Assembly (NCBI GenBank): GCA_015069495.1
Contig: SVIN01000019.1
Location: forward strand, 1 to 33,092
Length of the DNA: 33,092 bases
Source of the DNA: Clostridiales bacterium
GTDB lineage: Bacteria > Bacillota > Clostridia > Christensenellales > Borkfalkiaceae
Reading direction: 5' to 3'
Shown here: in pieces, positions 2,404 to 6,760 of the stretch
How positions within the stretch are numbered: position 1 is the stretch's first letter
Layout of the letters: each line of letters starts with the position of its first letter
The notes under the pieces: generated by a model
What the model was told of the DNA's origin: nothing
What the model saw: only the letters and a program-made list of their open reading frames with translations
The model's database searches: none
Made by a program: the position numbers and the translations under genes

Positions 2404-2432
2404 GAAGCTGAACCCCATAAGAGCTCAGCTTC
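2404..2432 (-). terminator. Terminator of the MACPF gene
   Basis: GAAGCTGA (2404-2411) pairs with TCAGCTTC (2425-2432). Read on the minus strand, the stem is followed by TTTCTTTAAAAAATTTTT. It lies about 60 bases beyond the stop codon of the MACPF gene and ahead of dnaK, so it should separate the two units. Confidence 0.7.
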
Positions 2433-2491: not shown

Positions 2492-5400
2492 TTAGTTTGG
2501 TACCTCAACCAAAAAAGCATACACAGTTGTAGGACCAACAGATAAATCATTCCACCGCCCATTGTAATTCTCTAAATAAAACTCTATTCCGCCATTATTG
2601 TTTGGCTCTCCTTCACCCCAATTACTGTAAACAAATTCCTCACCAGTTACCCATTTCCACTCACCAGATGTAGATTCTGCACCAAGCCAGCAACCGCCAA
2701 TCACTACCTCATTAAGAAGTTGACTAACAATTTCATTTTCCTCAGCAGAAGTGATTACCGCAAGAGTACCTCCCATATTTTGCGCATAAGCATTGGCATC
2801 ATACCAACTTAATGTTCCCGATATTAAATAATACGTATGGCAATCATAGCTAATACTGCCCCTATTGATAAGATTCGTTGAACCATTATTTCCAGAAATA
2901 CCATCTACTGCATTATTCCCAAAGTCATGGTATATAACACCATAGTTAATACCTATACCAATGCCATTTACTGGATTATTTGACCCAGTATCACCCTTTA
3001 AGCCTGCTGCGCCGCCTACGCCATAAACCCGTCCATCGCCACCGCGACCGCCGTTACCGCCTGAACCACCGCCACAACGCCAAACAGTTCCTAAAGAATT
3101 GTAGTAATTACCGCCTTTACCACCTTTACCACCGTTACCGCCGTTGCCGCCGTCACCATAGACACCATTCAACACCTTGGCACAATTGTTAACGTCGTTT
3201 AATATTCCTATAATAGCTAATCCCGCAGCCCCGCCGTTACCGCCGTTACCGCCGTTACCACCTTTTCCGCCATAATTCTTATTACCATCTTTCCCACCAG
3301 TAAGAATATTCACTACTGTTTTACCAGTAGAACCGATTTGGCCATCGCCGCCACGGGCACCATTACCACCGTTACCGCCTTTTATAATCACTTCTCCAGC
3401 ATTTACGTTAAGTTGATTTACTTGGATGGCTGCACCACCGCTGCCACCATTACCGCCATTACCGCCGTTCTCACCCGCATTGACACCAAAATAGCCAATC
3501 TGCCCGTTACCGCCATTACCACCCGTAATGCTCAACGCACCCACCATATCAACTGTTAAAGTACCAACGGACATAGCCATTCCACCATTACCGCCAGCAC
3601 CACCAGTCACTGTTGCGCTGATACCATGACCACCAACAATTATAAATTCGTCTCCATTGATGGTCATATTTTTGTTATTTGCCAAAACAGCTACTTGACC
3701 GCTTGCCCCAGCCATACTGCCGTTTCCACCTTTGATATATGCTTTATTAATAATATTCAGCGTAATATTTTCACTTTGCACCGCACTGAAATCCAAGGCA
3801 ACATGTCCAGTCTTCGCCTCATATGCAAAACTGTCAAATTCCACAAAGATATCTGTATCCCAATGCTGATTAAAGACGATAGACATGTTTTCAAAATGAT
3901 TTATCTTCAATTGGCCGCTTCTATCCTTTTGGTAATATCCACCCTTGAAAATTACTTTTTCCACGGGTACACCGTTAATCATAGGATATACCGTCAACAC
4001 TCCATCCACAAAATCAATACCATTTGCATTTTGCTCATAGGAAACCCCTGCCAAACTTGCCGAAGTATACGTTTGAAGTCCTGCAAAGTTTACTGTCAAA
4101 ATACCGCGTTCTTCGTCAAACGTAACCGATTCGCTGTACAAACTGCTGATTTTATCTTTCAAAGCATAATATTGCTCATCACATTGCGAATAGAAGTATT
4201 CATTGAGGATATTTTTCGTTTCTTCATATTCACTTCCAAGGAAATCCCATACCAATACCAAGCTTTCGTTAGGTACGTCAATCAAAACACAATTATCGTC
4301 ATTCAAACCTGCTGCCCATACTTCACAAGCGGATGAGAAAGCATCCAACGATGTAGCACCGCTCACGCCCTGCGCCGCACCGCCGATTGCCGTCGCTGTG
4401 AATTTCGATTGCAAACTTTCATTGGTCGTGCTTACAAAATCACTCGTTTTGGCTGTTGTACTATTAGAGGTATCTACACCAAGCTCAACCCCATAAACCG
4501 TACCGCTGATTCCTGCGGAAATTGTATTTTTGATATTAGTTCCAAACATTTCTTCCGCAGTTGCTTTATTGGTCAACAGTTCGTAATGCGCATTAAACTT
4601 CGCACCATAAATCCCCGCCGTAACAATATGCGTACCATACTTCTTCACAAATTCACCTGCGCTCATGGTGCCATTAGCAACCCTGTTTGCGTCCGCCTTA
4701 AAGCTTACCGACAAGATTGAGGAAAGCTTTTCCGTATCATTGTAACCGTAAATTTCCTTTTGATTGCTGATATAGTAGTAATCCATATCATAGAAAATGG
4801 CTTTCGTTTCGTTGTAATTGCTCGCTTCGTATTCAGCCCCTACTTCAAACTCAAAACCTGCCGTAGCCTTGGCAACCTTTGCATAGCCTACAGAGGCGCT
4901 TACACTCGTCTTATTGTTAATATTAGACGTAATTTTGTTCAAATAGGTATCCAACCCTTCAGCATAAGTAACCACCGTTTGTTGTTTCTTAACACTAGTG
5001 TCATTAACCAAACGAAGGCGGTTAAACAACGTTTCATCAAAAATTTTGGTCGTACCGTCTGCAAATTCGGTATATCCGCCCGTCAACAAGTTGACAGCAT
5101 CCCCGACGCCACGTGTACCTACAACCGTTTCCCCTGCAATTTCATAAGTATATACACTTGACCAAACGGAATTTACGTAATCGCCTGCAGGGTCCGCCAC
5201 CGCTTGAATATATACGTACAAATATTTATTTCCTGCAAAATATTCTTCCACGTTCATCATTGTGGTATTTACATCCACGTACACATCTTGAGGTAAAATA
5301 TGTACCGCGTAATATTCTGCATTTGCAACGTTATTCCAAACAATGCTGGTATCGTCTGCCGCTTGTACCGCAGGCGTTGCCAATCTGTTTTTAATCGTCT

Positions 5401-5947
5401 TTTTACATACGCCACATACGCCATCCGCGCCTACTGCATGGTCGTCCGTTTTAGGAATAGAACGAGTTTCGGTGTGCGAAGTATCATTGCCACACACTCG
5501 AATTTGTTCCCCTTCAACTGCACAAGTAGCCTCTTTCGTAGTTTCCCATGCGCCATAGTTATGCCCAAGCGGAGCAAACTCACGGGTTTCTTTGTGGGTA
5601 TTGTCAAATAAGCAAACGCGTTCTTCTACGCCTTTTTCTTCGCACGTTGCCTCTTTTGCTACTTTCCAAACGTCATAACTGTGCCCCGTCGCCTTGATAG
5701 GGCTGGTATGAACGTCTCCGCAATAATAACAAGTATAGGTCATAACGCCTTCATTTTCACAAGTCGGCTGTTGCGTAATAACCCCAACGCCGTACATGTG
5801 ACCGCGCGCAGAAACTTCCGTATAGGTATTATACCCGCAATACGAGCACATAACGTACGCCAACCAACCCGCTTCTGTGCAAGTAGGCTCTTTTTGTTCA
5901 TGAGAAACAATATCGTGCGAAATCATCGCAATTGTTTCCGTCTTCAC
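2492..5947 (-). CDS. MACPF/CDC-like pore-forming domain protein with C-type lectin tail (3' piece of an interrupted gene)
   Basis: About 1151 residues, in the same frame as the signal-peptide piece at 6026-6442 and separated from it only by one TGA. Order: four or more Cys-pair repeats (TC...G...Y.C..C pattern, residues 1-185), a short beta-type linker, then a MACPF core (about 270-600). The core carries the family signature KKYGTHIVTAGIYGA near residue 436. A Gly/Asn-rich segment (GGNGGNGG, about 735-980) follows, then a C-type lectin fold (about 1035-1151) with the calcium/sugar motifs EPN and WND and the WLGA block. The family forms membrane pores or acts in adhesion, and the lectin tail suggests glycan targeting (inference). 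The frame opens at a GTG (5947) with no good ribosome site, so independent translation is doubtful. Confidence 0.8.
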   Translation of the reverse strand: MKTETIAMISHDIVSHEQKEPTCTEAGWLAYVMCSYCGYNTYTEVSARGHMYGVGVITQQPTCENEGVMTYTCYYCGDVHTSPIKATGHSYDVWKVAKEATCEEKGVEERVCLFDNTHKETREFAPLGHNYGAWETTKEATCAVEGEQIRVCGNDTSHTETRSIPKTDDHAVGADGVCGVCKKTIKNRLATPAVQAADDTSIVWNNVANAEYYAVHILPQDVYVDVNTTMMNVEEYFAGNKYLYVYIQAVADPAGDYVNSVWSSVYTYEIAGETVVGTRGVGDAVNLLTGGYTEFADGTTKIFDETLFNRLRLVNDTSVKKQQTVVTYAEGLDTYLNKITSNINNKTSVSASVGYAKVAKATAGFEFEVGAEYEASNYNETKAIFYDMDYYYISNQKEIYGYNDTEKLSSILSVSFKADANRVANGTMSAGEFVKKYGTHIVTAGIYGAKFNAHYELLTNKATAEEMFGTNIKNTISAGISGTVYGVELGVDTSNSTTAKTSDFVSTTNESLQSKFTATAIGGAAQGVSGATSLDAFSSACEVWAAGLNDDNCVLIDVPNESLVLVWDFLGSEYEETKNILNEYFYSQCDEQYYALKDKISSLYSESVTFDEERGILTVNFAGLQTYTSASLAGVSYEQNANGIDFVDGVLTVYPMINGVPVEKVIFKGGYYQKDRSGQLKINHFENMSIVFNQHWDTDIFVEFDSFAYEAKTGHVALDFSAVQSENITLNIINKAYIKGGNGSMAGASGQVAVLANNKNMTINGDEFIIVGGHGISATVTGGAGGNGGMAMSVGTLTVDMVGALSITGGNGGNGQIGYFGVNAGENGGNGGNGGSGGAAIQVNQLNVNAGEVIIKGGNGGNGARGGDGQIGSTGKTVVNILTGGKDGNKNYGGKGGNGGNGGNGGAAGLAIIGILNDVNNCAKVLNGVYGDGGNGGNGGKGGKGGNYYNSLGTVWRCGGGSGGNGGRGGDGRVYGVGGAAGLKGDTGSNNPVNGIGIGINYGVIYHDFGNNAVDGISGNNGSTNLINRGSISYDCHTYYLISGTLSWYDANAYAQNMGGTLAVITSAEENEIVSQLLNEVVIGGCWLGAESTSGEWKWVTGEEFVYSNWGEGEPNNNGGIEFYLENYNGRWNDLSVGPTTVYAFLVEVPN

Positions 5948-6025
5948 TTCTTCACAATTTTCACAAAAATAAGATTTGATACCTTCATATATACACGTCG
6001 GTTCTTGCGTAATTTGCGCTTCGCC

Positions 6026-6442
6026 TCACATGTGAACGTGGTCGCTTTCAGGCAATCCGCAAACTGTACATTCTTTGTTGTAATAAACGTGGTCAACCGT
6101 CGCCACGCTTTCCGTACGCACTTCATCACACGTTGAACATGTATAGGATATTTCACCTACTTCTGTACAAGTAGCGGGAACCGTGATGACGCCTTCCCCC
6201 CAAGTATGCGTGTGTGAGGGAGTTTCGCTTGCGTCACTTTCCTGCTCGCTAGAGGGTAAAATGCTTACAAGACTGTCCTGCCCGCTATTTGTGTTTGGAT
6301 TACCGCTATTGGGCGTAATTACCACCCCGCCGCTACCGTTCGGGTCAACGTTCACACCGTTACAAGCCGCGAAACCGCCTGCTCCAATACAAAGCGTCAA
6401 AACAGAAAGTAGCATTGTTGCCAATTTTTTGAAGCCTTTCAT
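6026..6442 (-). CDS. Lipoprotein signal peptide and first Cys-repeat of the MACPF-lectin protein (5' piece, ends at in-frame TGA)
   Basis: 138 residues. It starts with a lipoprotein signal (KK, hydrophobic stretch, lipobox GGFAAC with Cys27), then a Ser/Asn/Gly-rich spacer and the first Cys-pair repeats. It ends at TGA (6028-6026) directly before GEAQIT. Aligning SHTHTWGEGVIT in this piece with DHVHM-stop-GEAQIT shows the stop falls where the repeat has Trp, so TGG to TGA is the simplest explanation. Everything beyond continues in frame into the MACPF piece; full length would be about 1316 residues. The start has GGAGGTG upstream and a consensus promoter. As it stands this would yield only a short secreted lipoprotein stub. 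Confidence 0.85.
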   Translation of the reverse strand: MKGFKKLATMLLSVLTLCIGAGGFAACNGVNVDPNGSGGVVITPNSGNPNTNSGQDSLVSILPSSEQESDASETPSHTHTWGEGVITVPATCTEVGEISYTCSTCDEVRTESVATVDHVYYNKECTVCGLPESDHVHM

Positions 6443-6468
6443 AAAGACACCTCCACATTTTTAATATC

Positions 6469-6526
6469 TAATGTATACATTATATAACGTAAAAATCTAT
6501 TTGTCAAGGATTTTTTGTAATATAAT
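6469..6526. promoter_or_regulatory. Divergent promoter and operator region between MACPF gene and regulator
   Basis: Minus strand, for the MACPF gene: TTGACA (6502-6507), 17 bases, TATAAT (6479-6484). The perfect 14-base palindrome TAATGTATACATTA (6469-6482) overlaps this -10. Plus strand, for the regulator: TATAAT (6521-6526) with a less convincing -35 (TTGTCA at 6501, only 14 bases away). The string ATCTAATGTA occurs twice (about 6467 and 6537), and both -10 boxes read TATAATGTA. This is what an autoregulated Cro/CI-type switch would look like; binding itself is inference. Confidence 0.75.
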
Positions 6527-6559: not shown

Positions 6560-6760
6560 ATGAAATTGCGCATATTGGAGATATTAAAGGAAAAAGGCAA
6601 GAGTAAATATTGGCTGTATATTCAACTGGGTTTGAGCTACCAAAATTTCAACAAGCTTGTCAACAACCAAACCAACGGTATCAAGTTTGAAAATTTGAAA
6701 GCATTGTGTGATATCCTTGAATGTACTCCCAACGACTTATTTGAAGAATATCACAAGTAA
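6560..6760 (+). CDS. Small Cro/CI-type helix-turn-helix regulator
   Basis: 66 residues, essentially one HTH DNA-binding domain (MKLRILEILKEKGKSKYWLY..., KLVNNQTNGIKFENLKALCDILEC, ending PNDLFEEYHK). It matches the short XRE/HTH_26 class that represses its own promoter in many Bacillota. AGAGGTGAT precedes the ATG at good distance. It is divergent from the MACPF-lectin gene and the two share a 117-base promoter region with a palindrome, so it is the likely regulator of that gene. No second sensory domain is present. Confidence 0.88.
   Translation: MKLRILEILKEKGKSKYWLYIQLGLSYQNFNKLVNNQTNGIKFENLKALCDILECTPNDLFEEYHK

What the first reader, a model, noticed from the sequence alone, without database searches (positions are those of the whole stretch)
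6023..6031. MACPF-lectin gene interrupted by one TGA exactly at a conserved Trp
The 6026-6442 and 2492-5947 pieces share a frame and only one stop separates them. Aligning the Cys-repeat in the first piece (HTHTWGEGVIT) with DHVHM-stop-GEAQIT places TGA where Trp stands. A TGG to TGA change, a sequencing error, readthrough or recoding are all possible. The rest of the 3.4-kb frame is clean, so if the change is real it is recent or the stop is suppressed. The aldo/keto reductase and mutY both end in TGA at sensible places, so a full code change is unlikely.
Basis: partly seen in the sequence, partly recalled or inferred. Interest (0 to 1): 0.8.

Follow-up and report, generated by a model that had tools for sequence, protein, structure and literature searches.

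The report
Pore-protein gene split by stop codon
A gut bacterium's gene for a large exported protein with a pore-forming and a sugar-binding domain carries one early stop codon; the evidence points to an ordinary recent inactivating mutation (or an assembly error) rather than a special reading of the genetic code.

Summary
On the minus strand a TGA at 6028-6026 separates a 138-aa piece (lipoprotein-type signal, first Cys repeats) from 1,177 open codons in the same frame (Cys repeats, MACPF domain, Gly-rich linker, C-type lectin). The stop lies inside a repeat unit, where other units carry an aromatic residue: mostly Tyr in this genome, sometimes Trp, so "conserved Trp" is too strong. A code change is not supported: RF2 is present here and over cut-off in 53 of 57 genus genomes; SelB reaches its cut-off in 0 of 57; no tRNA-Sec over cut-off; the 21 tRNA-Trp genes found in relatives have ordinary five-pair anticodon stems; no RNA structure marks the stop. 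In 791 kb of this genome (46%) one other interruption was found, a TAG in another envelope protein, so the effect is not TGA-specific. The gene is accessory, yet promoter, Shine-Dalgarno and terminator look intact. Best reading: a recent nonsense allele of an accessory surface protein, with at most leaky read-through. A consensus error cannot be excluded without reads.

The parts
6026..6442 (-). Upstream piece, 138 aa: signal peptide with lipobox-like GFAAC, linker, first Cys-repeat units; ends in the TGA
   Evidence: lipobox read by eye
6026..6028 (-). In-frame TGA inside a Cys-repeat unit
2492..6025 (-). Downstream frame, 1,177 codons then TAA: Cys repeats, MACPF, Gly-rich region, C-type lectin
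   Evidence: no second stop
4277..4786 (-). MACPF domain match (PF01823), with YGTH signature
2546..2812 (-). C-type lectin domain match (PF00059, residues 1072-1160 of the downstream piece; window coordinates computed from that)
6479..6507 (-). Promoter-like TTGACA-17-TATAAT, 12 of 12 positions, overlapped by an 11+11 nt inverted repeat at 6465-6486
6560..6760 (+). Divergent Cro/C1-type HTH regulator (PF13443, 56.8 bits), candidate repressor of the shared promoter region
   Evidence: regulatory role inferred
2404..2432 (-). Terminator-like hairpin (13 pairs) and T-rich tail after the gene

Best explanation
An ordinary, recent nonsense allele of an accessory gene. An intact gene of this build would make an exported lipoprotein with a Cys-repeat stalk, a MACPF pore-forming domain, a Gly-rich linker and a C-type lectin at the end; the sugar-binding end would aim the pore at a cell surface (inferred). 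Its promoter is probably controlled by the divergent HTH regulator (inferred). In this genome translation stops after 138 aa, leaving a short lipoprotein stub. A restart inside the frame would give a product without an export signal, so no exported MACPF protein is expected beyond the low background of UGA read-through. The gene is present in few relatives, and its neighbourhood differs in the one relative compared, so loss probably costs little. Shown: the stop, the domains, the export signal only in the upstream piece, lack of recoding machinery over cut-off in the draft, patchy distribution. Inferred: that the allele is biologically real and inactive.
For: Same frame and one stop; repeat unit continuous across it. 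RF2 over cut-off in this genome and in 53 of 57 genus genomes. SelB over cut-off in 0 of 57; tRNA-Sec not over cut-off in this genome. TGA is an ordinary terminator here: 115 of 602 stop-ended long frames in 791,227 sampled bases. In that sample 7 frames looked continued past their stop; 2 are real interruptions, this one and a TAG in another envelope protein, and 5 are ordinary gene ends or starts. The stop's surroundings fold no better than shuffles: z 0.57, -0.30, 0.07. The restart codons GTG 5947 and ATG 5926 have weak upstream context and no signal peptide follows them, against GGAGGTG before ATG 6442 (by eye). MACPF occurs in 16 of 301 family genomes searched, four of them in the genus, own included. 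In relative G006, 7 of 13 neighbouring genes queried matched the 18 kb fetched; SDR, HTH, both MACPF-gene pieces, dnaK and the HNH-like gene did not. In the 15 relatives' MACPF frames printed (16 loci examined), the domain is in frame with its own N-terminal signal, 3 of 15 judged by eye.
Against: No second copy of the site was found, so the truth of the base, its frequency and purifying selection are untested. Promoter, Shine-Dalgarno, terminator and 1,177 codons are intact, which a functional read-through product would also show. PMC7918605 (abstract, Results part 1 and passages seen) holds that many bacterial genes with in-frame stops keep dN/dS below 1 and may not be pseudogenes, and cites 6% UGA read-through in a B. 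subtilis prfB+ strain.
Confidence: 0.68

Rival explanations
1. Consensus or assembly error: the source population has no stop here, or is mixed, and the assembly kept a minority or wrong base.
For: The window lies in an incomplete draft (50 contigs, 76.43% complete, 2.12% contaminated). No independent copy was found to confirm the base. The rest of the frame is clean.
Against: Errors should also strike housekeeping genes. In 791 kb the two interruptions found are both in large envelope proteins; the other five candidates are ordinary gene ends or starts. Two events are few, and the scan finds only stops with a long open continuation, not frameshifts.
Confidence: 0.2
2. Leaky or regulated UGA read-through keeps a low dose of the full-length surface protein, perhaps as bet-hedging.
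For: UGA, called a leaky stop in PMC7918605, at an aromatic position; clean downstream frame and intact signals. Precedent for UGA read-through by Trp-tRNA in bacteria (PMC13092985 and PMC7918605, passages seen).
Against: No structure at the stop; RF2 present; 21 of 21 tRNA-Trp genes found in the genus have five-pair anticodon stems (the own genome's tRNA-Trp was not found); no such split in the 15 relatives' MACPF frames printed and no stop in the 17 domain matches; no orthologue known to keep the stop.
Confidence: 0.1
3. Recoding: UGA read as Trp genome-wide, or as selenocysteine here.
For: One in-frame TGA at an aromatic position; no tRNA-Trp of any anticodon was found in this incomplete genome.
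Against: RF2 in own genome and genus; SelB over cut-off in 0 of 57; no tRNA-Sec over cut-off; TGG used at 9.2 per 1000 codons; no second TGA interruption in 791 kb.
Confidence: 0.01
4. Two genes: a short lipoprotein, and a separate MACPF gene that starts after the stop.
For: In-frame starts exist at GTG 5947 and ATG 5926.
Against: The repeat unit spans the stop; the later start would drop the export signal and half a repeat; weak ribosome-binding context; the 15 relatives' MACPF frames printed each carry a signal.
Confidence: 0.01

Closest known systems
In-frame stop codons / nonsense alleles of bacterial genes (Belinky et al. 2021, PMC7918605)
   Same: Single in-frame stop, otherwise intact gene; such stops tend to persist on the time scale of population polymorphism (Results part 1 read).
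   Different: Here no orthologous stop or dN/dS could be measured.
Bacteroidales secreted antimicrobial proteins (BSAP-1, BSAP-2; PMC4999547, passages seen)
   Same: Gut bacterial MACPF proteins with an export signal (signal sequence seen for BSAP-2); killing of competitors is a plausible shared role.
   Different: Host is a Clostridia-type bacterium; Cys repeats and a C-terminal C-type lectin here; split by a stop; no activity known.
MACPF proteins of related draft genomes (G029, G038 and others)
   Same: YGTH-containing MACPF domain in exported, mostly lipoprotein-like proteins; G029 40-41% identical in the domain.
   Different: Uninterrupted; a Cys-repeat pattern that finds 3 units in this gene's downstream piece found 0 in the 15 relatives' frames.
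UGA read-through by tRNA-Trp(CCA) with four-pair anticodon stem (PMC13092985, passages seen)
   Same: UGA where Trp could be inserted.
   Different: All 21 tRNA-Trp genes found in the genus have five-pair stems; the genome's own tRNA-Trp was not found in the draft.

Membership tests
MACPF (PF01823) | Profile score over curated cut-off | tested here: met
   35.8 bits against 21.5
MACPF (PF01823) | Conserved YGTH...G and GG core | tested here: met
   Invariant in the 11 aligned sequences; a profile of them finds MACPF/perforin structures, best E 5.8e-24
MACPF (PF01823) | Oligomeric pore formation | not testable with these tools
   needs protein
C-type lectin domain (PF00059) | Profile score over cut-off | tested here: met
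   44.2 bits against 22.6; EPN and WND motifs seen by eye, their meaning recalled
BSAP antimicrobial proteins | Bacteroidales origin | tested here: not met
   The best four named records by mutY are Clostridia or Clostridiales MAGs
BSAP antimicrobial proteins | Shown killing of bacteria | not testable with these tools
   needs protein
Genetic code with UGA = Trp | RF2 lost | tested here: not met
   prfB over cut-off although cut by a contig end; over cut-off in 53 of 57 genus genomes
Genetic code with UGA = Trp | tRNA-Trp(UCA) present | tested here: inconclusive
   22 tRNA hits, 21 typed by ARAGORN, no Trp and no UCA anticodon; draft 76% complete
Genetic code with UGA = Trp | Many in-frame UGA in genes | tested here: not met
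   One real TGA case in 791,227 bases; the two other TGA candidates are a gene end (alpha/beta hydrolase) and a gene start (P-II)
Selenoprotein | SelB and tRNA-Sec encoded | tested here: not met
   SelB over cut-off 0 of 57; best tRNA-Sec hit in this genome 42.1 bits, cut-off 47, is a tRNA-Ser; draft incomplete
Selenoprotein | Hairpin just after UGA | tested here: not met
   z-scores 0.57, -0.30, 0.07
Pseudogene / nonsense allele | Premature stop in a frame that is otherwise one gene | tested here: met
Pseudogene / nonsense allele | Relaxed selection after the stop | not testable with these tools
   No close copy of the gene was found

The most novel reading that the evidence does not exclude
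The UGA is a kept dose-control device: slow, leaky read-through at an aromatic repeat position lets a small share of cells or molecules make the full surface MACPF-lectin, under the divergent HTH regulator, while most molecules end as a short lipoprotein.
Probability: 0.06. Interest if true: 0.6.

Novelty: new member of a known kind. Interest (0 to 1): 0.2.

Why it matters
If ordinary, it is one more example of a large accessory surface protein being switched off by a point nonsense change in a gut bacterium, and a caution for annotating draft genomes. The build of the protein (lipoprotein-type signal, Cys-repeat stalk, MACPF, Gly-rich linker, C-type lectin, with a divergent HTH gene at a consensus promoter) is worth noting as a possible lectin-aimed pore in a Clostridia lineage. 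If read-through were real, it would be a natural case of stop-codon dosing of a secreted pore protein.

Tried and rejected
Genome-wide code change and selenocysteine: rejected as far as the draft allows. Structured read-through element: not found. Two-gene reading: rejected. A scan of genome contigs with the MACPF piece matched 33 stretches, none a relative. A viral-contig scan for 40 bases around the stop found none. The tools say that records very near the window's genome may be left out of both scans. The first tRNA-Trp pattern gave 0 of 57 because I had mis-spaced it and tells nothing; the corrected one hit 28 places in 23 of 57 genomes, 21 of them tRNA-Trp by ARAGORN, none in the own genome. 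It presupposes a CCA anticodon, so it cannot find UCA. The first stop scan's score threshold missed the site itself and was replaced. In one search, 7 of 168 frames passed the filters. I hold 2 to be real interruptions; checked afterwards, 4 are gene ends (the upstream frame fills its Pfam domain almost to the last position: GtrA-like, alpha/beta hydrolase, histidine kinase, Met-tRNA synthetase) and 1 is a P-II-like gene starting at GTG. The closest MACPF homologue, G029, has no Cys repeats by eye, so it cannot say what stood at the stop. NCBIfam gave only matches far below cut-off for both pieces.

Full report
What is there. The window is contig C19 of a draft genome of 1,738,295 bases in 50 contigs, 76.43% complete. 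By mutY the best four named records are Clostridia or Clostridiales MAGs, three of them from roe-deer gut, the best at 76% identity. On the minus strand, ATG 6442 with GGAGGTG before it opens a frame that runs through a lipoprotein-type signal (GFAAC, by eye) and Cys repeats and stops at TGA 6028-6026. The same frame is then open for 1,177 codons to TAA 2494-2492. Pfam finds MACPF (35.8 bits) and C-type lectin (44.2 bits) in the downstream piece and nothing in the upstream one. A profile of this MACPF domain and ten relatives' finds MACPF/perforin structures in the PDB, best E 5.8e-24.

Is the stop inside one gene? Yes. The repeat unit begins before the stop and ends after it. In 46 repeat hits from the DNA fetched by then (duplicates, L001 and L002 left out) the residue in the stop's column was Tyr 23, Trp 12, others 10, stop 1. 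In the 26 from this genome it was Tyr 17, Trp 4, Ile 2, Gln 1, Phe 1, stop 1 (recount of the other own loci adds none). These are regular-expression hits, some of them chance matches. The column is aromatic; Trp is one of its usual residues, not the rule here. The restart codons in the downstream frame lack a signal peptide and a good ribosome-binding site (by eye). Of 16 relatives' loci examined, 15 gave a MACPF frame by my motif (L104 gave none); in these 15 the domain is in frame with an N-terminal signal, 12 by lipobox pattern and 3 by eye. A few pattern hits may be chance, and L092 and L093 are near-copies at the N-terminus.

Could the stop be read? RF2 scores over its cut-off in this genome, although its gene is cut by a contig end, and in 53 of 57 genomes of the genus; the other four have partial or lower matches. 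SelB reaches its cut-off in 0 of 57; the matches below it are in all 57 and most likely other translation GTPases (inference). The best tRNA-Sec hit in this genome, 42.1 bits against a cut-off of 47, is a tRNA-Ser. The draft gives 22 tRNA hits, 21 typed by ARAGORN, none Trp and none with anticodon UCA, so its own tRNA-Trp is unknown. In the genus a pattern for tRNA-Trp(CCA) hit 28 places in 23 of 57 genomes; ARAGORN of them tRNA-Trp, all with five-pair anticodon stems. That matters because a four-pair stem raised UGA read-through in E. coli (PMC13092985, passages seen). Three stretches at and after the stop fold no better than shuffles.

How unusual is it in this genome? In 791,227 sampled bases (46%), 632 dominant frames of at least 100 codons were found; 602 end in a stop: TAA 446, TGA 115, TAG 41. 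Of these, 168 are followed by at least 30 open codons, and 7 have a coding-like continuation without an early ATG. Two are real interruptions: this one, and a TAG after 1,115 codons of an envelope protein with a DUF5050 match (L069 12595-12593). There too the stop stands at an aromatic position: Trp in the sister unit, mostly Tyr in the relatives G006 and G027. The other five are ordinary: four gene ends and a P-II-like gene with a GTG start. So the effect is not specific to TGA, and both cases lie in large, repeat-bearing envelope proteins, as expected of dispensable genes. Two cases are too few for statistics, and the unsampled 54% of the draft is unknown.

How old is it? Between 3.0 and 4.2% of possible substitutions in the downstream frame would make a stop (kappa 4 to 1). 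No second stop in 1,177 codons therefore bounds neutral change since the event at about 71-101 substitutions, 2.0-2.9%. That says recent, or under selection, or not real.

Setting. The promoter-like TTGACA-17-TATAAT at 6507-6479 matches 12 of 12 positions, the best of 11 hits in the region, though the number of hits equals that of shuffles (11 against a mean of 11.2). An 11+11 nt inverted repeat at 6465-6486 overlaps its second hexamer. A divergent Cro/C1-type HTH gene lies at 6560-6760, and a 13-pair terminator-like hairpin follows the MACPF gene (6 such sites in the region, shuffles 3.9). MACPF is found in 16 of 301 family genomes searched, own included, at 17 places, none with a stop inside the match; four of the 16 are of the genus. 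In the one relative compared, G006, 7 of 13 genes queried match the 18 kb fetched (SRP54, RimM, thiamine transporter, protease, the 9969 gene, mutY, FMN reductase); SDR, HTH, both MACPF-gene pieces, dnaK and the HNH-like gene do not (names). The gene is thus accessory.

Conclusion. The plainest account is a recent nonsense allele in an accessory surface gene, or an assembly error that mimics one. Functional read-through is possible but has no positive evidence, and recoding is excluded as far as this draft allows. Literature: PMC7918605 (abstract, Results part 1 and passages), PMC13092985 (passages), PMC8629427 (passages; its table of known bacterial UGA changes lists mycoplasma-type bacteria, insect symbionts, Gracilibacteria and Absconditabacteria), PMC4999547 (passages). 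Three paper searches were made; I make no claim that anything is absent from print.

Noticed in passing
L069:12593-12595 (minus strand; G000:C39): In-frame TAG inside the C-terminal repeats of a 1,115+129-codon envelope protein (DUF5050 match), at a position that is Trp in the sister unit and mostly Tyr in relatives.
   Followed up: partly
window:6440-6570: Divergent HTH_26 regulator and a consensus promoter share an AT-rich region with inverted repeats; looks like a compact repressor-operator switch for the MACPF gene.
   Followed up: partly
   Followed up: partly
window:2990-3530: Gly/Asn-rich GGNGG-type linker between MACPF and lectin; the MACPF frame of G148 (L100) also has a Gly-rich stretch near its end.
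   Followed up: no
G006:C12 and SVHW01000005.1: Both contigs are 99,978 bases long and give the same mutY and FMN-reductase identities, so G006 is probably MAG SIG394.
   Followed up: partly
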